DNA from: Solitalea canadensis DSM 3403
GTDB taxonomy: Bacteria; Bacteroidota; Bacteroidia; Sphingobacteriales; Sphingobacteriaceae
DNA: 64,000 bases
Direction of reading: 5' to 3'
Assembly: GCF_000242635.2 (NCBI RefSeq)
Contig: NC_017770.1
Location: forward strand, 4,414,669-4,478,668
The translations under genes and the position numbers were made by a program. A model generated the notes under the pieces. It had not been told where the DNA came from, made no database searches, and was given only the letters and a program-made list of their open reading frames with translations. This document shows positions 53,148-60,807 of this stretch, one piece after another (positions within the stretch are counted from its first letter, which is position 1; each line of letters starts with the position of its first letter).

Positions 53148-53615
53148 CTATTCAGGTTTAAGTACAATTGTAAATTCTTTCTTTGTAAATAAAAGCCGGT
53201 TTCCCTCTCTACTTTTTAAAATCCAGTCAACTTTATCAACATAATTAACACCAGTTATATCAAATTTTGTGGTATCGATCGGATTCATCTGATAACTATA
53301 TATAGTATCCTTATCCAACCATTTAATAATTCCAGCTGTTTCATCAAGAGAGAAATTTCCCCAGTCTTTTACTACATTTCCGTTAATGTCTAAATCCGTT
53401 TTAACAAGAAGATAGTTTTTGTTTGAGGAGAACTGTAAAGAAGCTGTCTTGAATTCACGTACACCATCAGGATAATAAATATCCAAAATTAGAGCCCACT
53501 TTCTACTGGTTAATTCATTTAGTGTAAGTTTAGTAGCAGGAATTGGTTCATTATTTTCTTTTGAACAACTACACCAAAGCAGTGCTATAAATGCTAAATA
53601 GTTAATTGATTTCAT
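53148..53615 (-). CDS. Putative lipoprotein, lipocalin-like
   Basis: The 155-residue product has a lipoprotein signal with lipobox LWCSC, then a beta-rich domain with KWALILDIYYPDGV, LQFSSNKNYLLV, and a WGNFSLDETAGIIKW pattern that resembles lipocalin-like proteins of Bacteroidota. Its start overlaps the end of the RadC-like gene by 14 bases, so it may be read from the same transcript. The TAG stop is shared with the boundary of the RadC scrap. Confidence 0.65.
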   Translation of the reverse strand: MKSINYLAFIALLWCSCSKENNEPIPATKLTLNELTSRKWALILDIYYPDGVREFKTASLQFSSNKNYLLVKTDLDINGNVVKDWGNFSLDETAGIIKWLDKDTIYSYQMNPIDTTKFDITGVNYVDKVDWILKSREGNRLLFTKKEFTIVLKPE

Positions 53616-54060
53616 AGGTGTTGTTTAAATATTTCAAACTACAGTTATGCAATATATACAAATCGTTAACTAATCTTCGCTTCTTCAAAGCTTGCTTTAG
53701 TTTTTGGGTGAGGTGTTTATCGCTGACGCTTGGAGAAACATTGCAGGAAGGATGGTTGTGGCAGAGTATAATGCCGGAGGCTCCTGCTTTTAAAGCGGCA
53801 GCAAAAATTAGTTCTGGATCAACTAAGGCGCTGGAAATTCCGCCGCTGGTTACTTTATAAAACCCCAACACTTTATTGGCTCGGTTTAGGAGCAGAATTT
53901 TAAATTCTTCAATAAACTCGATCAGTTCCATGTCCCACACTTGCATAAAGAACTCATAAACGTCTTTTGAGCTGCTGATGCGTAAGGCTTCGCTTAACTC
54001 AAGTGCAGGTTTATATTTTAAAAATACTTCGGCTATTTGTTCAGGAACTTTGTTTTTCAT
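53602..54060 (-). CDS. RadC-family JAB-domain protein, short form
   Basis: From ATG 54060 the 152-residue product has the RadC JAB/MPN domain: EEFKILLLNRANKVLGFYKVTSGG, the zinc motif LCHNHPSCNVSPSVSD near residue 97, and a KKRRLVNDLYILHNCSLKYLNN end. Like many mobile-element RadC proteins it lacks the N-terminal UPF0758 half. Its exact role is unknown; such genes cluster with defence and mobile DNA. An in-frame ATG at 54111 would extend it through the palindromic element and was not used. Confidence 0.85.
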   Translation of the reverse strand: MKNKVPEQIAEVFLKYKPALELSEALRISSSKDVYEFFMQVWDMELIEFIEEFKILLLNRANKVLGFYKVTSGGISSALVDPELIFAAALKAGASGIILCHNHPSCNVSPSVSDKHLTQKLKQALKKRRLVNDLYILHNCSLKYLNNTYEIN

Positions 54061-54209
54061 AGCTAACGCATAACTCCCCTGGCGTTCCACACAGGGGTTT
54101 TTAAAAACCAAAAGCGTGGAACTGTAACCATATCTGCTGCAGGAAGGCTCTGGTAAGCCGGTACAAACAAACAGGCACAGCCCACGCTTTTGGGCATGAG
54201 CTGTTAGTC
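54061..54209. other. Structured palindromic element beside RadC
   Basis: The gap upstream of the RadC-like gene holds nested inverted repeats: GTTCCAC/GTGGAAC (54084 and 54116), the 14-bp palindrome GGTTTTTAAAAACC (54096-54109), and AAAAGCGTGG/CCACGCTTTT (54110 and 54182). Its ends show AGCTAACGC and CTGTTAG, and AGCTAACGC recurs at 54238. In layout it looks like an integron attC-type site, but the core sequences deviate and no integrase is present. It may be a cassette boundary or another folded recombination site. Confidence 0.5.
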
Positions 54210-54326: not shown

Positions 54327-54914
54327 TTACTTTGTTGGTTTAATTGAATCTTTAAATCGATTATAAAGTTTTCTATTAAATGTGCCAACGGCAACATCGT
54401 TAAGTCCAAAAAAATCACTATCATGTGTAATTATAGTAGCATTGTGTTCTTTTGCTACTAAATAAATATAATGATCATTATAATCTGATTTCCTTGCATC
54501 AAATTTTGTTAGGCTATCAAAGTCATTTATTGCAATGTCTTTTATCTCTACATTTGATAGATAACCTTCAATATCATCTATGATTATATCATATTGTTTT
54601 TTGAAATTATCGCTTTTTCTATATTCCTCTTTATAATAATTCTTAAACTCAGGAACACTACCGGTTTTAGATTTATACTTTTTGCTATATTCTTTATGTG
54701 CATGAAAACGCAGTAAGCGATTAAGAATTTCGCTTAATTGAAGCGGACACAATAAAATTCGGGATTGCTTTGTTTTTAAAATTTTGTCGAAGAATTCTTT
54801 GTAATGGACGCTTGCTTGTTCATCCAAACCAAAAATTGGCAACCAAACATTGGTATCTAAAATATAATAGCAGTCTTTCGGACTGCTATCACTATGTAAA
54901 ATAAATATCTTCAA
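54327..54914 (-). CDS. PIN-domain nuclease
   Basis: The 195-residue protein has the acidic PIN residues: YYILDTNVWL with Asp near residue 20, a Glu in LQLSEILNRLLRF near 62, then DYNDHYIYLVAKEHNATIITHDSDFFGL with Asp residues near 144 and 163-166. PIN domains cleave RNA. It is longer than typical VapC toxins and no small antitoxin precedes it. It starts 5 bases after the STAS-like gene and so ends the operon Mrr - IIG - HATPase - STAS - PIN. It may be the effector of that set. Confidence 0.85.
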   Translation of the reverse strand: MKIFILHSDSSPKDCYYILDTNVWLPIFGLDEQASVHYKEFFDKILKTKQSRILLCPLQLSEILNRLLRFHAHKEYSKKYKSKTGSVPEFKNYYKEEYRKSDNFKKQYDIIIDDIEGYLSNVEIKDIAINDFDSLTKFDARKSDYNDHYIYLVAKEHNATIITHDSDFFGLNDVAVGTFNRKLYNRFKDSIKPTK

Positions 54915-54919
54915 AATGG

Positions 54920-55255
54920 TTAAGCAAAAGCTTCCTCTCTATAGGCTTGATAGTTGTCGCGGTTAATTACATTATCCCACATGTCATTATATTTATCCAT
55001 AAAGGTTAAAATTTGATTATAACCAATTGGATGAATATATTTTCTAACTGTTTCTTCTCCGTACTCTGCTAACAATTTACCGAATGAAGCATTTAAGAAT
55101 AATGTTGAACAACGTTTAATGGCTGAAAAATCAATTTCAATATCATTGGGTTCAGCAGATTTAAATTGTTTTTTAACCTCTTCATAAATCATCAAGCCAT
55201 CATCATGCAATGATGCGTTAGGACTTTTTAAAATATCTATGACGTTAATTTTCAT
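54920..55255 (-). CDS. STAS-like (DUF4325) protein
   Basis: From ATG 55255 the 111-residue product matches the DUF4325 STAS-like pattern: NVIDILKSPNASLHDDGLMIYEEVKKQF, then DIEIDFSAIKRCSTLFLNASFGKLL and YIHPIGYN. STAS-type proteins act as switches that bind ATPase partners, as in anti-sigma systems, but this family is not shown to do so. It sits between the HATPase gene (87 bases upstream) and the PIN gene (5 bases downstream). A longer in-frame start at 55315 is less likely because it would precede the conserved domain by 20 residues. Confidence 0.82.
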   Translation of the reverse strand: MKINVIDILKSPNASLHDDGLMIYEEVKKQFKSAEPNDIEIDFSAIKRCSTLFLNASFGKLLAEYGEETVRKYIHPIGYNQILTFMDKYNDMWDNVINRDNYQAYREEAFA

Positions 55256-55342
55256 TTCAAAATCATTGTTAATCAACATAATAACTAAGGTAGAGTGTAA
55301 TTTAATAGAGTGCAAAAATATAATAAAATTTTATATTGCTAT

Positions 55343-56197
55343 TTAAGTTAGCTTTTTTTTGTTGAATTGCAAATTAATAGCTGCACCAATATAATTGCTA
55401 TCCAAGGTTTTTAACCCATCAGGATATAATACAGTTCCCTTGGTTTTACTACACCATCCGGCATCGCCAGTATAAATTTGTAGTCCACCGTTAGTTAAGT
55501 CAAAATATGTTCGTAAATTTTTTAAACCAAGTCCGCCTGAAGCATCCGGTTTTGTGGTATTTCCCTCAACGGCCCACAAAATAGCCTCGCCGCAAGTTGT
55601 CACCTTATGTGGTACACATTGATTTATTTTTTTGAAAAAGCCAACGCCTATATCACTTATTGTAAAGTTTATAACTTCTCCTTTCGGGAAATACTGTCCG
55701 CATACAAAAAATGGGTCTGTTGTTTCTGCATGTTTATCAATATTGCCATAAACTTCAATAAGATCATCCATTAATTTCTCTTTTGTTTCATAGCTGAACT
55801 TTGGCATTGAACCGTGTGTTAAAAGCTCATCCTCTATATAAGCAATAAATTCATCTTTTTGTTTAGGCATAAATCCTTTAAACGGAATGCACGATTGCTT
55901 TTTATATAATGCATAATTTTGTTCAACTGGCAAAAAATCATTATGAAACAAAATATTACATTTCCTTATTACTTGTTCGGTATCAATGGTAAAGCTTAGT
56001 GAATTATCTTTTTTTAAGCGATACAGCAATGCTCCTAAAAAAGCGCACAGGTTGCCGTCTAACCAATTTAAATTAGCCAGGTTAATTTTAATACTGCAAT
56101 TGTTATACCTTTTGCATTCATCATAAAAGTTCAACAATTGCTTAAAGCCAGAAAAGTTAGTGTAAATGTTATCGCTTCCTAAAAGCACCTCCTTCAT
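55343..56197 (-). CDS. STAS-like plus HATPase (anti-sigma-like) protein
   Basis: The 284-residue protein appears to fuse two modules. Residues about 1-90 resemble a STAS or MlaB fold (SIKINLANLNWLDGNLCAFLG). The rest is a HATPase domain: DDLIEVYGNIDKH near 145 (N box, Asn near 152), FTISDIGVGFF near 182 (Asp in G1 box) and SGGLGLKNLRTYFDL near 221 (G2 box). It lacks a phosphoacceptor His, so it is an anti-sigma- or GHKL-type ATPase, not a kinase. Its ATG overlaps the stop of the type IIG gene by 1 base (TAATG), a sign of translational coupling. Confidence 0.85.
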   Translation of the reverse strand: MKEVLLGSDNIYTNFSGFKQLLNFYDECKRYNNCSIKINLANLNWLDGNLCAFLGALLYRLKKDNSLSFTIDTEQVIRKCNILFHNDFLPVEQNYALYKKQSCIPFKGFMPKQKDEFIAYIEDELLTHGSMPKFSYETKEKLMDDLIEVYGNIDKHAETTDPFFVCGQYFPKGEVINFTISDIGVGFFKKINQCVPHKVTTCGEAILWAVEGNTTKPDASGGLGLKNLRTYFDLTNGGLQIYTGDAGWCSKTKGTVLYPDGLKTLDSNYIGAAINLQFNKKKLT

Positions 56198-59100
56198 TAC
56201 ACTTCTCCCTCCACAATTTTAATTTCTTCTTCGGTTAAACCGTAAAGTTGATAAACGAGTTGGTCGATTTGATCTTCGAAAATAGTTGTATCGGATTTTG
56301 AGTCTTGTTTTTTGATAAAAATGATTTGATCTATTAAATCAATAAATGGTTGTTGCTCATTTATTTTTCTAACTTTTATAGGGAATTTCCTTAGATCATT
56401 TAGGATAATTTTAGGAAACATTTTTCTCACAGATTTTGCTGTGTTTTTAATAAAAAAGTATGATAATAGTTTACTTGAAATTAAAGCAAGGATGTATCTT
56501 AAATCAATTTCCAGAAGCTTAGGCAAAATGGCAATATTACTCATATTAAACAAATAATCCTCTTCTGTATAAGAAGCTATCAAAGATTTAGGATATTTAC
56601 TGGTAATTTCTCTAAGAATAATTTTTTTACCCCTAAACATTCTAGGTTCAGCTAAATGCTCACCGAATTTCAAATAGCTTCCTTGCCAATTAATAGAAAA
56701 ACGATTAATATTTTTACCGTCCAAATATTGAAAAGTGCTTTCATCAAATTTATAATTATAATCAAATGGTCGATTTTTTACATCTTCCTCAGTTTGTTTT
56801 GGCTTCCCTTTTCCCTTTTGATACGCTTTTAGTCCAGCTTTTATGTAAACAATATTATCCAACAGCACCGAATCCATTATTAACTTTTTAGTCAAATCAT
56901 CGCTTTCTTTTTTAGAAAATACATTTAATGAATAATCACTATTCGATTTGAAAAAACTTTGTTTCTTTAAATGAGAATTATTAATCTGGCTATTCGTTCC
57001 AATTGAAATCTGTATGTCATTTGATTTCAAAGTGTTTTTAGTACCTGCAATTGTTATTGTTTCAACGTTTACCCCATCAAATGATTCCCCCATAAAATTC
57101 ACAACTTCAGTAAGCTGAGATGTTTTCATTAAACATTCTCTGCTCTTTGTTGTCGATGATACCATTAAGAAAGAGTTTGGAACAATTAAACTATAGTCTC
57201 CCTTATGATTTAAAACATTTAAACTTCTTTCAATAAATAAAACATATAGGTTTACTTGATAGTCAATCGTTTTATAATTATCATAGAAATATTTCTTCGT
57301 TGAGTCATCAAAATTCTCTCTTGCAAAAACATACGGCGGATTTCCAATCACAACATCAAAACCAACAAAATCTCCATCATTGTTTAATACCTCAGGAAAC
57401 TCGAAGCGCCATTCAAAAGCATTTTCATAAATTTTGTTACTTTTTATTTCTTCAACTTCAGTTTCAAGTTTATTTACTTCAGTTGTTTGCAAACTTATTT
57501 TTTTGTTCCATTCTGTTTTTTCTTTTTTTCCCATTTCAAACAAGCCTGTTTGTTGAGTAAGGTTAAAAAGTTCGCCTTTAAGTTTGTAAAGCCTAACTAG
57601 TTTGGGGTCGTTTTTATTAATCTCACTCCTAAAATCTCTTTTAATAGTTTCGATTAACTGTTCCATTTTTCGCTTTTGCTCCTTACTTTCTGCATTTCGG
57701 TAAGTGTCAACTGCTGAACGATACATTTCAACATCCCATTTGCTTTTTTTAAGGGCCTGTTTTAAATCAGCATCTAAGGCAAAACGGCTAATTAATGAGT
57801 TTCCGCATTTTATATTAATATCAATGTTGGGAAGTGTTTCAAGAACATTTTCAGATTTATAATAGGCGTTTTTCAGCAATTCAATCCATAAGCGCAAGCG
57901 GCAAATTTTTACTGAATTTGGATTTATATCAACACCAAAAAGACAGTTCTCAACTGTTTGCTTTTCATGAAAAAGCATTTCTTGTATGCGCTGGCTTTCC
58001 TTGTTTGTTGGATTATATTTGAAAAGTTCGCCATTTTCATCGGTAATTGCCAGTTCATCATTTTGAACCTCAACATGATATTCTTTTAATCGTTTCCCTT
58101 GGCGATCTAGTAATATTTTGAGGTCATTTTTTATAGCAATGATTTCATTTAAAGCCGACACCAAAAAGTGGCCAGAACCAACTGCGGGATCACAGATTTT
58201 TAAACTATTGATGATTTTGTTGGCTTCTTCACGGTTTTCAATTTTATCGTATAAGTCATCAATCGTTTCGCACTTCCAGTCTTTTGCTTCATTAAATTTT
58301 TGAACCACCGCCCTCCTAATGGTATCACGACACATGTACATGGTAATAAAACCTGGCGTAAAAAATGACCCATCTTTATAACCGTTAATCTTTTCAAAAA
58401 TTAAACCAAGAACCGAAGCATTAATTAAGGTTTTATTGTCTTCCTGAATTTCCTCTGAACCTTCACTAGCAAAATCGTATGAGTCAAGAAAATCAAACAA
58501 GTATTCAAGCGTGCTTGTTTCACCTGTTTTCTTTTTTCCGGTTGCGTCTTTTAAAACAGTATTTGAAACACATGGTAAAACGCCCCTATCATCCAAATTG
58601 CTAACAAACAAGGTTAAGTGCTCAAGTTCTGTTGGCTCAAATAAGGAGCTATTTAAATAAGGAACATTGCCAAATCTTTTAATTACTTCTTCATCACGTT
58701 CTTCAACTTTTCTGGCTAAAACCTGAAAAAACAACCCATTTAAATCATCAAAATCACGAATCTTATTTCGATTTAAAAAAGCATACGACTTATCGCTCTT
58801 CTGGTAGCTAATTAATTGCGCTTCTAGTAACTTTAGAAAAAGTATTCGGTTAACCCAAGTAATTACCAGTTCTAAACCAACATTAAACAATCTGTCTTGG
58901 TGATTATCTCCGTATTGAGAAGGTTTATCTAACCTGGGAATTTTATCAAGTGAATCAAGTTGTTTAATCGTATTTTCCAATAAAGAACCTGCATTTCTCT
59001 CGCCCGCCTTTTTACGTTCAATTAGTTTTTTACTTCCTTCTTTAGTTTCAGTTAAACCAATAATATGTAGCAACTCAGTATAAAAGCGTTTATCTAAACT

Positions 59101-59529
59101 ATTGCTATCATTAGTAAAAGGAAGTTTTAACAAGTGCTCTGGCGATAGCAACTTGAATAATGCAATTAGCTTTGTATCATCCTTTTTGTCATTGTTTCGA
59201 AGTGGTTTGCTGTAATCCTGAAAATTGAAATAGGTGTATTCAATATTTTCAATTACAGCCTGAATGGCATGTTCGGCAATTTCCTTGTAAAAGAACTCTG
59301 TGTTTGTACCTGCTAATCTTTTTTCTTCAAAGTCCGTAAATTGATTTACTAAGGATTTATTTTGAGCAAATAGTTTTTCAAAATGATTGGCATCAAAAAT
59401 ATACCACTCATTAATATTTGTTACAACAAGATGCCTAATTTCAAGGTTTTTATGGACAACCCTTTCACGTAAGTAGTAAAGTAATAGCTCCTGAAATGCT
59501 TTGGTATTTACATTTTCAACCCTTAACAT
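56197..59529 (-). CDS. Type IIG-like restriction-modification protein, nuclease motif-less segment
   Basis: The 1110 residues read from ATG 59529 are the bulk of an Eco57I-class type IIG/IIL protein with an adenine-specific methyltransferase: motif I CDPAVGSGHFLVSALNE near residue 446, the NPPY motif in FDVVIGNPPYV near 730, and a C-terminal specificity region (PLDKxxKY-like FDYNYKF, then RMFRGKKIILREITS). Such enzymes carry cleavage and methylation in one chain. The first about 100 residues of the family, which include the PD-(D/E)xK site, lie upstream at 59530-59847 in the same frame but behind a stop codon. Initiation at this ATG would give a methyltransferase without the nuclease. Confidence 0.88.
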   Translation of the reverse strand: MLRVENVNTKAFQELLLYYLRERVVHKNLEIRHLVVTNINEWYIFDANHFEKLFAQNKSLVNQFTDFEEKRLAGTNTEFFYKEIAEHAIQAVIENIEYTYFNFQDYSKPLRNNDKKDDTKLIALFKLLSPEHLLKLPFTNDSNSLDKRFYTELLHIIGLTETKEGSKKLIERKKAGERNAGSLLENTIKQLDSLDKIPRLDKPSQYGDNHQDRLFNVGLELVITWVNRILFLKLLEAQLISYQKSDKSYAFLNRNKIRDFDDLNGLFFQVLARKVEERDEEVIKRFGNVPYLNSSLFEPTELEHLTLFVSNLDDRGVLPCVSNTVLKDATGKKKTGETSTLEYLFDFLDSYDFASEGSEEIQEDNKTLINASVLGLIFEKINGYKDGSFFTPGFITMYMCRDTIRRAVVQKFNEAKDWKCETIDDLYDKIENREEANKIINSLKICDPAVGSGHFLVSALNEIIAIKNDLKILLDRQGKRLKEYHVEVQNDELAITDENGELFKYNPTNKESQRIQEMLFHEKQTVENCLFGVDINPNSVKICRLRLWIELLKNAYYKSENVLETLPNIDINIKCGNSLISRFALDADLKQALKKSKWDVEMYRSAVDTYRNAESKEQKRKMEQLIETIKRDFRSEINKNDPKLVRLYKLKGELFNLTQQTGLFEMGKKEKTEWNKKISLQTTEVNKLETEVEEIKSNKIYENAFEWRFEFPEVLNNDGDFVGFDVVIGNPPYVFARENFDDSTKKYFYDNYKTIDYQVNLYVLFIERSLNVLNHKGDYSLIVPNSFLMVSSTTKSRECLMKTSQLTEVVNFMGESFDGVNVETITIAGTKNTLKSNDIQISIGTNSQINNSHLKKQSFFKSNSDYSLNVFSKKESDDLTKKLIMDSVLLDNIVYIKAGLKAYQKGKGKPKQTEEDVKNRPFDYNYKFDESTFQYLDGKNINRFSINWQGSYLKFGEHLAEPRMFRGKKIILREITSKYPKSLIASYTEEDYLFNMSNIAILPKLLEIDLRYILALISSKLLSYFFIKNTAKSVRKMFPKIILNDLRKFPIKVRKINEQQPFIDLIDQIIFIKKQDSKSDTTIFEDQIDQLVYQLYGLTEEEIKIVEGEV

Positions 59530-59847
59530 TTCTGTTCTATTAGTTGGCTTTTTTGCTTCTATAAGAACGCCGACCGTTGATTTGGCATCCTTACCGTTAT
59601 GAATAACCAGATCATTTCGCCCTTTTGTATTTACAAAGTGGTTTGGGCAGTAATACGTGTTTTTTTAAAAGTCAGCAACCAAATTTTTATGAAATTCTTC
59701 TGATTCCTTTTCATTGATTTGATCAATCAATTGAATAAGGTTCACTTTGAACTTCTCAATTTCAATACGATTAGGCTTAACTTTTAAAAAGGCTTTATTT
59801 AATGCTTTTCTAGGATTTGTTATTTTATTAGCGCTCACAATCCACAA
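59530..59847 (-). pseudogene. 5' part of the type IIG gene, split off by an in-frame TAA
   Basis: The frame starts at TTG 59847 (GTG a few codons later is also possible): KITNPRKALNKAFLKVKPNR to HKNLVADF, then TAA at 59665-59667. The same frame continues without a break: KNTYYCPNHFVNTKGRNDLV, then VLIEAKKPTNRTE, and into ATG 59529. IEAKK is the third part of a PD-(D/E)xK nuclease site. Family members have Leu at the stop (DFLK), so a single T-to-A change (TTA to TAA) is enough to explain it. The 318 bases therefore encode the missing N-terminus. Either the nuclease is lost, or the stop is read through. Confidence 0.8.
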
Positions 59848-59886
59848 GATTTAGTCTTCAATAAGTATTTAATACAATCTTACTAT

Positions 59887-60807
59887 TTATTCATTGCTCC
59901 CTAAAAAATAAATAGAATGCAGCGGGAGCATATTCTTATCCTCATCGGTAAGTTTACTATAAAACTGTTGCCATAATGATATAAAATTATCAATATCCAA
60001 CAGCTTAATATGTCTGTGGCTTTCACGTGCGGAACGTTCTGCTTCAGAAGTAAATGTACCAGATGTTACAAAAAGGCCAATATCACCATCCTTGTTTAAT
60101 AATCCGGTTAAGCTTCTGATGTCGTCAACTGGTATGCTTGAATCAGGACGGTGTTTAACCTGAACTTTTAATCGCGGGGAAGTTGCACCTAAAGGGTCAT
60201 TATAAGCAATTATATCCAAACCGCCGTCTTTTCCTTTTGGGGAAATAAAAGGTGTATGATAATTCATCGCACGCAACAAAGCCGCAACCATATCCTGAAA
60301 TTCATAAGGGTTTTTTGTTCTGATGAAATCCTTTATTCCCGATAAAGCTAGCTCCATTAAATAATCAAGATTCGCTTTCTGGGTTTGAGGTTTGTTTTCT
60401 TCTAATTCTTCGATCTCTGTCTTGCTCTTCTTAATCTTATTAACATTATTGTCTACTGCCCAGTTTCTATATAAATCGCCGGCTGTTTCCAGTAATTTAA
60501 CAGGTCCCAAAGAAATCGCCTTTTCACCTTCTTCAGTTAAGTACCAAATACCTTTATTCTTTCGCAAGAACCCTGCTTTAATACAATCTATTGTATAAAA
60601 ACTTAAAATGGATTCCCACCGTACGTACCCTGTTTTCTCATAAACCTCTTTTTCCCAATCAGTGAACTGAATGCTGTTTCTGATTTTTTCAAACACTTGC
60701 TTTCCAGGAAGCTGTCCACCGGATTCCTTAAGAATATTAAATGCTGCAAAAATAGTTTTAGCCGCTGAACGTTTTGATGGTGCTAGTTTTTCTAATTCTT
60801 TATCCAT
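59887..60807 (-). CDS. Mrr-family restriction endonuclease
   Basis: The 306-residue protein has an N-terminal winged-helix domain (about 10-110, AAFNILKESGGQLPGKQVFEKIR and GIWYLTEEGEKAI) and a C-terminal Mrr catalytic domain (about 165-300). Its site reads GKDGGLDIIAY near residue 194 and LKVQVKH near 215, a D...QxK form of the PD-(D/E)xK site. Mrr proteins cut modified DNA. It is 39 bases upstream of the type IIG gene and likely opens the operon. Mrr cleaving DNA methylated by a neighbouring enzyme would be self-toxic, so the specificity must differ or be controlled. Confidence 0.88.
   Translation of the reverse strand: MDKELEKLAPSKRSAAKTIFAAFNILKESGGQLPGKQVFEKIRNSIQFTDWEKEVYEKTGYVRWESILSFYTIDCIKAGFLRKNKGIWYLTEEGEKAISLGPVKLLETAGDLYRNWAVDNNVNKIKKSKTEIEELEENKPQTQKANLDYLMELALSGIKDFIRTKNPYEFQDMVAALLRAMNYHTPFISPKGKDGGLDIIAYNDPLGATSPRLKVQVKHRPDSSIPVDDIRSLTGLLNKDGDIGLFVTSGTFTSEAERSARESHRHIKLLDIDNFISLWQQFYSKLTDEDKNMLPLHSIYFLGSNE

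What the first reader, a model, noticed from the sequence alone, without database searches (positions are those of the whole stretch)
54327..60807. Mrr - type IIG - HATPase - STAS-like - PIN operon as a candidate new defence system
Five minus-strand genes lie in close order. Reading in transcription order: a winged-helix Mrr endonuclease, a type IIG-like restriction-modification protein, a STAS/HATPase protein starting on the 1-base stop/start overlap TAATG, a DUF4325 STAS-like protein, and a PIN nuclease 5 bases further. STAS and HATPase proteins form partner switches in anti-sigma systems, so this could couple DNA restriction with conditional release of an RNA nuclease, for example as a backup abortive response if restriction fails. 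That wiring is inference; the gene contents and spacing are seen.
Basis: partly seen in the sequence, partly recalled or inferred. Interest (0 to 1): 0.75.

Follow-up and report, generated by a model that had tools for sequence, protein, structure and literature searches.

The report
VapKSC toxin switch behind restriction gene
Behind a damaged restriction-enzyme gene this bacterium carries a recently described three-gene anti-phage switch (kinase, antitoxin, RNA-cutting toxin), and relatives of that switch are found joined to very different DNA-modifying defence systems, which suggests that the two lines of defence may work together.

Summary
The five genes are there as described. The last three are a vapKSC operon, published June 2026 (PMC13373217): STAS-GHKL kinase (VapK), STAS antitoxin (VapS), PIN toxin (VapC). 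Profiles of the VapS and VapC families find the solved Escherichia proteins (9z7o) at E about 1e-29; published residues VapS S48 and VapC D28 align with T71 and D20 here. So the trio is not new. Mrr has no close homologue in 99 relatives. At this locus the restriction link is a singleton: the nearest trios lack restriction genes, 9 genomes with close IIG homologues lack the trio, and this IIG gene has an in-frame stop that cuts off its nuclease domain. In the wider family the link recurs: of 17 vapKSC clusters in an even sample of the phylum, 8 adjoin or sit inside DNA-modification defence operons (types I, IIG, III, Hma, PglX-like), 7 of the 8 with gaps of -4 to +7 bases. In clusters with genome counts it is 8 of 23 against 0.8 expected. 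None of 12 clusters found otherwise is so joined. The main text of the vapKSC paper does not report this. Best reading: VapKSC as second-line growth arrest plugged into modification-based defence; hitch-hiking is the main rival.

The parts
59887..60807 (-). Mrr-type endonuclease (winged helix + Mrr_cat), 306 aa; neighbour, probably not part of the switch
   Evidence: Pfam Mrr_N 9.7e-11, Mrr_cat 1.4e-21; PADLOC PDC-S02 1.2e-41; no close homologue in 99 relatives, 6 of which have matches of 24-28% identity
59665..59847 (-). N-terminal remnant of the type IIG gene, ending at an in-frame stop (59665-59667)
   Evidence: Frame read; aligns with the N-termini of 10 homologues that are open here
59530..59664 (-). 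in-frame stretch with the D...EAK nuclease motif but no ATG/GTG/TTG start: not expected to be translated
56197..59529 (-). type IIG restriction-modification protein without its nuclease motif (methylase + specificity parts), 1110 aa
   Evidence: Pfam Eco57I 6e-36, TaqI_C 3e-18, DUF7149 from profile position 100 only; PADLOC REase_MTase_IIG 4.2e-225 from position 98; 81% identical open relative in same-genus genome G003
55343..56197 (-). vapK: STAS + GHKL protein kinase; start overlaps the IIG stop by one base
   Evidence: E148, N152, H156 in 30 of 30 aligned VapK; model like SpoIIAB, Z 10.3
54920..55315 (-). vapS: DUF4325 STAS-like antitoxin (likely start ATG 55255); presumed phospho-acceptor T71 of the long ORF
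   Evidence: DUF4325 3e-11; family profile finds Escherichia VapS 9z7o_A at 2.8e-29; S/T in 37 of 37 rows, one of them from the second pair of L124; T71 aligns with E. coli S48
54327..54914 (-). vapC: PIN RNase toxin, 195 aa, starts 5 bases after vapS
   Evidence: PF01850 1.9e-12; family profile finds Escherichia VapC 9z7o_C at 1.1e-29; D20, D144, D147, D165, D167 in 30 of 30 and E62 in 27 of 30

Best explanation
The last three genes are a vapKSC operon whose start overlaps the end of a type IIG restriction-modification gene. At rest VapS sits on the PIN toxin VapC and keeps it off. When single-stranded DNA appears (phage replication, or breaks made or left by restriction), VapK is activated and phosphorylates VapS on T71; VapS lets go, VapC cuts RNA and the infected cell stops growing before phage is released. 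Placed behind a restriction or modification gene, it is made together with the first line of defence and acts as a second line when DNA attack has begun but has not cleared the phage. Here the nuclease part of that first line has been lost by an in-frame stop, so at this locus the trio would answer to other sources of single-stranded DNA. Shown here by sequence: gene order, family membership, conserved switch and catalytic residues, the overlap, its recurrence. Shown by others for the Escherichia homologue: toxicity, antitoxin action, S48E release, phage protection; activation by ssDNA was shown in vitro for the relative CapK, and for VapK rests on a predicted complex and a mutant. Inferred: the wiring in this organism, joint expression, and that restriction supplies the signal.
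For: Family identity: 9z7o VapS/VapC at about 1e-29; T71 = S48 and D20 = D28 of an E. coli trio; N-box 30 of 30; RefSeq names of that trio: ATP-binding, STAS-like, PIN. Folds. Tight unit: 23 of 23 strong PIN hits (E 1.1e-27 or better) in 395 genomes of the phylum lie beside a DUF4325 hit. Recurrent joining; 8 of 17 clusters in the phylum sample, 8 of 29 overall; 7 of 8 with gaps from -4 to +7 bases; among clusters with genome counts 7 of 22 against 0.78 expected, window left out, P about 3e-6 (with the window 8 of 23 against 0.79); 0 of 24 HATPase-STAS pairs without PIN so joined (Fisher p 0.006); the joined label needs 8 changes on the tree, 7 forced by well-supported branches. Published mechanism: PMC13373217.
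Against: The nearest relatives of this trio (kinase identity 65% in G002, 64% in G022, 46% in a Mucilaginibacter MAG) have no restriction gene beside them, and 9 genomes with close IIG homologues lack it, so this juxtaposition is a singleton. None of the 12 clusters found outside the phylum sample is joined, and 18 of 29 have no restriction-type BLAST hit nearby. In 3 of the 8 joined clusters the modification gene is itself altered: the window's stop, an in-frame TGA in the L100 methylase, a transposase domain in the L111 methylase frame. On the tree the joined label is no more clustered than shuffled labels (8 changes, shuffled mean 7.2). The E. coli trio stands alone beside phage genes. Defence genes cluster anyway, which inflates adjacency against a uniform background. 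No expression or activity data for this organism.
Confidence: 0.6

Rival explanations
1. Hitch-hiking: vapKSC is a mobile addiction-like cassette that lands in defence islands and behind defence genes without working with them.
For: Stand-alone copies beside prophage genes, on a viral contig and on a plasmid; RadC beside the window locus; the joined state is scattered on the tree like a shuffled label; 3 of 8 partner modification genes are altered; other genes occupy the same 3' slot of some IIG relatives.
Against: Stop/start overlaps or gaps under 8 bases in 7 of 8 joined clusters, and the position inside an Hma operon, are more than co-location; 0 of 24 related HATPase-STAS pairs are so joined.
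Confidence: 0.28
2. PrrC-like direct latch: the modification or restriction complex itself binds the VapKSC complex and holds it silent; a phage anti-restriction protein releases it.
For: Architecture like prrC beside hsd genes, where EcoprrI silences PrrC until phage T4 Stp neutralises it (PMC2610378, passages; PMC3506569, passages); close joining to modification systems of five kinds.
Against: VapS is already a sufficient antitoxin in the published homologue, so no outside latch is needed; one protein surface would have to fit unrelated type I, IIG, III, Hma and PglX-like partners; many family members have no partner nearby.
Confidence: 0.09
3. One reading: an integrated five-gene system in which Mrr and IIG restriction are wired to conditional PIN release.
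For: Five genes in close order on one strand.
Against: No other genome searched holds the set; Mrr has no close homologue in 99 relatives; in those 99 the kinase and IIG co-occur only as a 32-residue IIG scrap with a stop in G022 and weak, distant matches of both in G089; the IIG nuclease is interrupted.
Confidence: 0.03

Closest known systems
VapKSC toxin-antitoxin system (Chambers et al., EMBO J 2026, PMC13373217)
   Same: Same three genes in the same order; sequence homology of VapS and VapC to the solved Escherichia proteins; same phospho-acceptor and catalytic positions.
   Different: Here the start overlaps a (broken) type IIG gene; the E. coli copy looked at stands alone. The paper's main text reports 103 of 289 (36%) within 10 kb of another immune gene; searched for Hma, type III and IIG it has none of these words.
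PrrC / EcoprrI (and RloC)
   Same: An RNA-cutting toxin encoded with a restriction-modification system as a second line.
   Different: PrrC is an ABC-ATPase/HEPN anticodon nuclease held by the restriction enzyme itself; here a PIN nuclease held by its own STAS antitoxin and freed by a kinase.
CapK + CapS (same paper)
   Same: STAS-GHKL kinase acting on a STAS protein; nearly 20% lie between a restriction-modification operon and an immune operon.
   Different: CapK carries an HTH, CapS a wHTH DNA-binding domain, and the pair controls transcription; here no HTH was found and a toxin gene follows.
SpoIIAB/SpoIIAA and RsbW/RsbV partner switches
   Same: Fold of kinase and STAS protein; a conserved Ser/Thr at the start of a STAS helix.
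   Different: Target is a nuclease, not a sigma factor; the kinase carries an extra N-terminal part, about 100 residues, that looks STAS-like.

Membership tests
VapKSC | three-gene operon: STAS-GHKL kinase, STAS protein with short C-terminal region, VapC-like PIN | tested here: met
   the STAS nature of the kinase's N-terminal part was not tested on its own
VapKSC | homology to Escherichia VapS and VapC | tested here: met
   profiles hit 9z7o_A 2.8e-29 and 9z7o_C 1.1e-29
VapKSC | absolutely conserved Ser/Thr in VapS (S48) | tested here: met
   T71 aligns with S48 of E. coli; S/T in 30 of 30 and 37 of 37
VapKSC | VapC catalytic acidic residues (D28) | tested here: met
   D20 = D28; five Asp in 30 of 30, Glu in 27 of 30
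VapKSC | aromatic ssDNA-contact residue in VapK (F54) | tested here: inconclusive
   W45 column is F/W in 27 of 30, but E. coli JNE25-001 has F49 and F57 nearby and the published numbering could not be mapped
VapKSC | toxicity, antitoxin action, phage protection | not testable with these tools
   bench work
Type IIG restriction enzyme | one chain with nuclease, methylase and specificity parts | tested here: not met
   methylase and TaqI_C specificity present; nuclease motif cut off by an in-frame stop: a decayed member
CapK + CapS | HTH on CapK and wHTH on CapS | tested here: not met
   VapS here is 131 aa at most, the kinase 284 aa; no HTH match in Pfam
PrrC/EcoprrI | HEPN/ABC-ATPase anticodon nuclease | tested here: not met
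   effector is PIN
Classical VapBC | VapB DNA-binding antitoxin beside VapC | tested here: not met
   partner is a STAS-like protein; NCBIfam VapC models far below cut-off

The most novel reading that the evidence does not exclude
VapKSC is a general second-stage plug-in for DNA-modification-based immunity: it has been recruited separately, up to eight times in this sample, into type I, type IIG, type III, Hma and PglX-like operons, is translated with them, and fires when the partner's own cutting, or its failure, leaves single-stranded phage DNA. The same kinase-STAS switch also drives a membrane effector in place of PIN in a sister group.
Probability: 0.3. Interest if true: 0.72.

Novelty: new variant of a known kind. 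Interest (0 to 1): 0.5.

Why it matters
That restriction and cell suicide are functionally joined has been proposed on the basis of PrrC, described as the one well-studied model (PMC3506569, passages). A small, published switch found overlapping or embedded in five unrelated kinds of modification system gives a portable, testable case of such joining: does cutting by the partner enzyme fire the toxin?

Tried and rejected
Rejected: the trio as a new system (vapKSC is in print; found). Rejected: Mrr as a component. Rejected: trio always alone, my first reading, overturned when more distant loci showed restriction genes directly upstream.

Led nowhere: DUF4325 as a text term gave 2 papers, neither about the system; searches did not find it; phages with the window VapS gave one unannotated contig; plasmids with L098 VapS and L108 VapC gave none; viral contigs with the window VapK gave none. 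MADS (recalled) was considered: PADLOC has mad models, and none matched the VapK, VapS and VapC proteins given to it (window, L102, and L111 without VapS); PADLOC's DrmA matched VapK weakly (0.022 window, 1.6e-7 L102, 1.1e-7 L111). The kinase alignment finds no solved structure by sequence.

Limits of the counts: of 76 DUF4325 places, 44 were fetched (40) and one is the window; all 23 strong PIN places were examined. Two more PIN fragments (E about 1e-14, 45 residues, G417 and G306) have no DUF4325 hit, and weaker PIN matches were ignored. The other 12 of the 29 clusters came (five; three), the class search (three) and a plasmid (one); none of them is joined. Clusters are PIN at 80% identity or more; the 24 pairs were not clustered. 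'Restriction-type hit nearby' is BLASTP against 17 reference proteins of these loci plus Pfam or PADLOC on chosen neighbours, so other kinds may be missed, and several stretches end at a contig edge. The chance estimate uses matches of two methylase families with one added per genome, a Poisson model and 5 kb each side; it is optimistic because defence genes cluster. Gaps use the longest ORF starts; the vapK of L102 has a long N-terminal extension, that of L111 is short, L107's is a fragment, L120 has none, and L083's is frame-broken. The vapK of G022 is split over two contigs (L015/L016), so L015 was left out of the tree, as were cluster mates; L149 and L150 were added. In one search the wrong one of two kinases was taken for L124; one search corrects this. 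In one search I named position 42 for the aromatic residue by miscount; one search gives W45. Dataset EV3 of the vapKSC paper was not seen, so the joining may be listed there. L011 (IIG 5.6 kb downstream), L122 (a methylase-like ORF 3.7 kb upstream) and L124 (type ISP gene beyond a second kinase-STAS pair) have restriction-type genes nearby but were counted as not joined. On re-checking, the odds of the best reading (from 0.72) and of the novel case (from 0.35) were lowered because of the 0 of 12 and the 3 of 8 altered partner genes, and the rivals' odds were trimmed so that all sum to one.
Full report
Observation. Pfam supports Mrr (Mrr_N, Mrr_cat), the IIG-like protein (DUF7149, DUF7814, Eco57I, TaqI_C), DUF4325 and PIN. 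The STAS/HATPase protein has no Pfam match; its AlphaFold model (mean pLDDT 89.8) has five SpoIIAB structures as its best matches (Z 10.0-10.3, 127-134 residues, 2.4-2.7 A; only residues 103-283 are well tested there). The DUF4325 model (mean pLDDT 77.6) resembles STAS proteins: transporter STAS domains come first (Z up to 8.4), then RsbV (6.9) and SpoIIAA (6.8), values at which the tool warns of common arrangements.

The IIG gene is broken. DUF7149 matches only from profile position 100. Read upstream, the same frame holds a normal N-terminus, one in-frame stop at 59665-59667, then the D...EAK stretch of the nuclease domain before the ATG at 59529. Ten homologues are open through this place; the closest is 81% identical, in a genome of the same genus. 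The genome is a single contig, but I cannot check reads. The product starting at 59529 would keep methylase and specificity parts and lack the nuclease motif.

What the trio is. A three-gene system of CapK-like STAS-GHKL kinase, STAS antitoxin and VapC-like PIN toxin was published in June 2026 as VapKSC (PMC13373217; abstract and sections 12, 13, 14 and 17 read, other passages by search). Membership was tested: the VapS-family profile finds Escherichia VapS (9z7o_A) at 2.8e-29 and the VapC-family profile Escherichia VapC (9z7o_C) at 1.1e-29. Against an E. coli trio annotated as ATP-binding, STAS-like and PIN proteins, window T71 aligns with VapS S48 and D20 with VapC D28; the N-box E, N and H of the kinase are kept in 30 of 30, the S/T in 30 of 30, five VapC Asp in 30 of 30, the Glu in 27 of 30. 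The aromatic ssDNA residue is likely but not settled (W45 column aromatic in 27 of 30).

Is it tied to restriction genes? Near this locus on the tree, no. Among 100 genomes (own included), close kinase homologues occur in G000, G002 and G022 and weak ones in 3 more; close IIG homologues in G000 and 9 others, none of which has the kinase. G022 has a 32-residue IIG scrap with a stop, and G089 weak IIG matches. Mrr has no close homologue. The nearest trios (L014, L015/L016, L008) have no restriction gene beside them; L016 has an AbiEi-type gene, L014 a relaxase two genes up.

Across the family, yes in part. PIN hits of E 1.1e-27 or better in 395 genomes drawn evenly from the phylum number 23, each beside a DUF4325 hit. 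Clustered at 80% PIN identity these are 17, and 8 of the 17 (7 of 16 without the window) are joined to DNA-modification defence genes: type IIG (window; L096), type III Mod+Res (L081), type I (L098 HsdR-HsdM-HsdS; L100; the L107/L108/L109/L110/L120 group), Hma (L102, between hmaA, 1528.2 bits, and hmaB, 1495.5 bits) and a PglX-like methylase followed by the trio, an AAA ATPase and an HmaA-like stretch (L111). Distances from the upstream stop to the vapK start are -1 (window), 3 (L081), -4 (L096), 2 (L098), 2 (L100), 7 (L102), -4 (L111) and about 150 (type I group). The other 12 clusters, found by kinase searches and on a plasmid, include no joined one, so it is 8 of 29 overall, 18 of 29 having no restriction-type BLAST hit nearby. 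With methylase densities of the same genomes, 0.78 of 22 clusters would have one within 5 kb by chance, against 7 (P about 3e-6, window left out). Of 24 kinase-STAS pairs without PIN none is joined and one (L080) has type I genes on the other strand nearby (Fisher p 0.006, or 0.03 counting L080). On a tree of 30 trios the joined label needs 8 changes, gains or losses, at least 7 forced by well-supported branches; shuffled labels need 7.2 on average, so it is scattered. That fits repeated recruitment, and also hitch-hiking. In 3 of the 8 the modification gene is altered: the window's stop, an in-frame TGA in L100, a transposase domain in the L111 frame. E. coli carries the trio alone beside phage genes, a viral contig has it, a Deinococcus plasmid has it beside an HTH gene.

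The IIG side. In 3 of the 10 IIG stretches fetched another gene's start overlaps the IIG stop: a 172-aa protein, followed by a PLD-like gene (L139, one base); KAP NTPase, with DUF4062 and UPRTase genes further on (L140, one base); a 603-aa protein (L141, 4 bases). L142 has a PDC-M60A defence candidate on the same strand 273 bases on. The slot behind this enzyme may be a place where second-line genes are swapped.

Mechanism. For the Escherichia homologue, VapC is toxic, VapS binds and relieves it, S48E abolishes binding, and the operon gives about 2-log protection against one phage, Bas42, needing VapC D28, VapS S48 and VapK F54. ssDNA activates the relative CapK in vitro; for VapK this is a prediction plus the F54A mutant. 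The authors themselves suggest that restriction-made damage could activate CapK. The joining found here is what one would expect if vapKSC is a second line behind such enzymes. The PrrC-like latch remains possible but is not needed.

Novelty. The trio is known. That it overlaps, or is inserted in, type I, IIG, III, Hma and PglX-like operons is not in the main text of that paper as far as a word search shows (no occurrence of Hma, type III or IIG). Searches found no paper on the trio, and 76 and 101 found only this one (of 101, 15 of 43 papers were listed). The paper's dataset was not seen, and the library holds open-licence papers only. I file it as a new variant of a known kind, of medium interest.

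Noticed in passing
L087:5378-5890, L095:6230-6793, L104:6179-6790 (L105:2232-2660 perhaps): In a sister group of kinase-STAS pairs without PIN, the third gene overlaps the STAS gene by 10-31 bp (a 65-bp gap in L105) and encodes a 143-204 aa protein with one or two hydrophobic N-terminal stretches; L087's matches PADLOC 'Effector 2TM' (3.7e-6), those of L095 and L104 do not but resemble it. Possibly the same switch driving a membrane effector.
   Followed up: partly
L124:5959-13071: A vapKSC operon stands back to back with a second kinase-STAS pair that is followed 170 bases on by a type ISP restriction-modification gene (Type_ISP_C 5e-80).
   Followed up: partly
L139-L142, 3' side of the IIG gene: Some relatives of the window's IIG gene carry other genes in the slot where the window has vapKSC, 3 of 10 stretches by overlapping starts.
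   Followed up: partly
L120:1624-4527: In this type I locus vapS and vapC follow hsdS with no vapK found between: a switch without its kinase, or a deletion.
   Followed up: no
L151:4001-5279: Streptococcus phage Javan172 carries a kinase of this kind and a 114-aa protein near its integrase, with no PIN gene annotated. A table of Francisella phage vB_FhiM_KIRK lists a 293-aa protein followed by a 112-aa DUF4325 protein (PMC7924643, passage).
   Followed up: no
window 53602-54111: RadC-like JAB-domain gene just downstream of vapC; another lies right after the L093 kinase-STAS pair and one just upstream of the L141 IIG gene.
   Followed up: no
L111:1349-4951: A 1200-aa frame in which a PglX-like methylase is read together with an IS200-like transposase domain: an insertion inside the methylase, or a fusion.
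   Followed up: no
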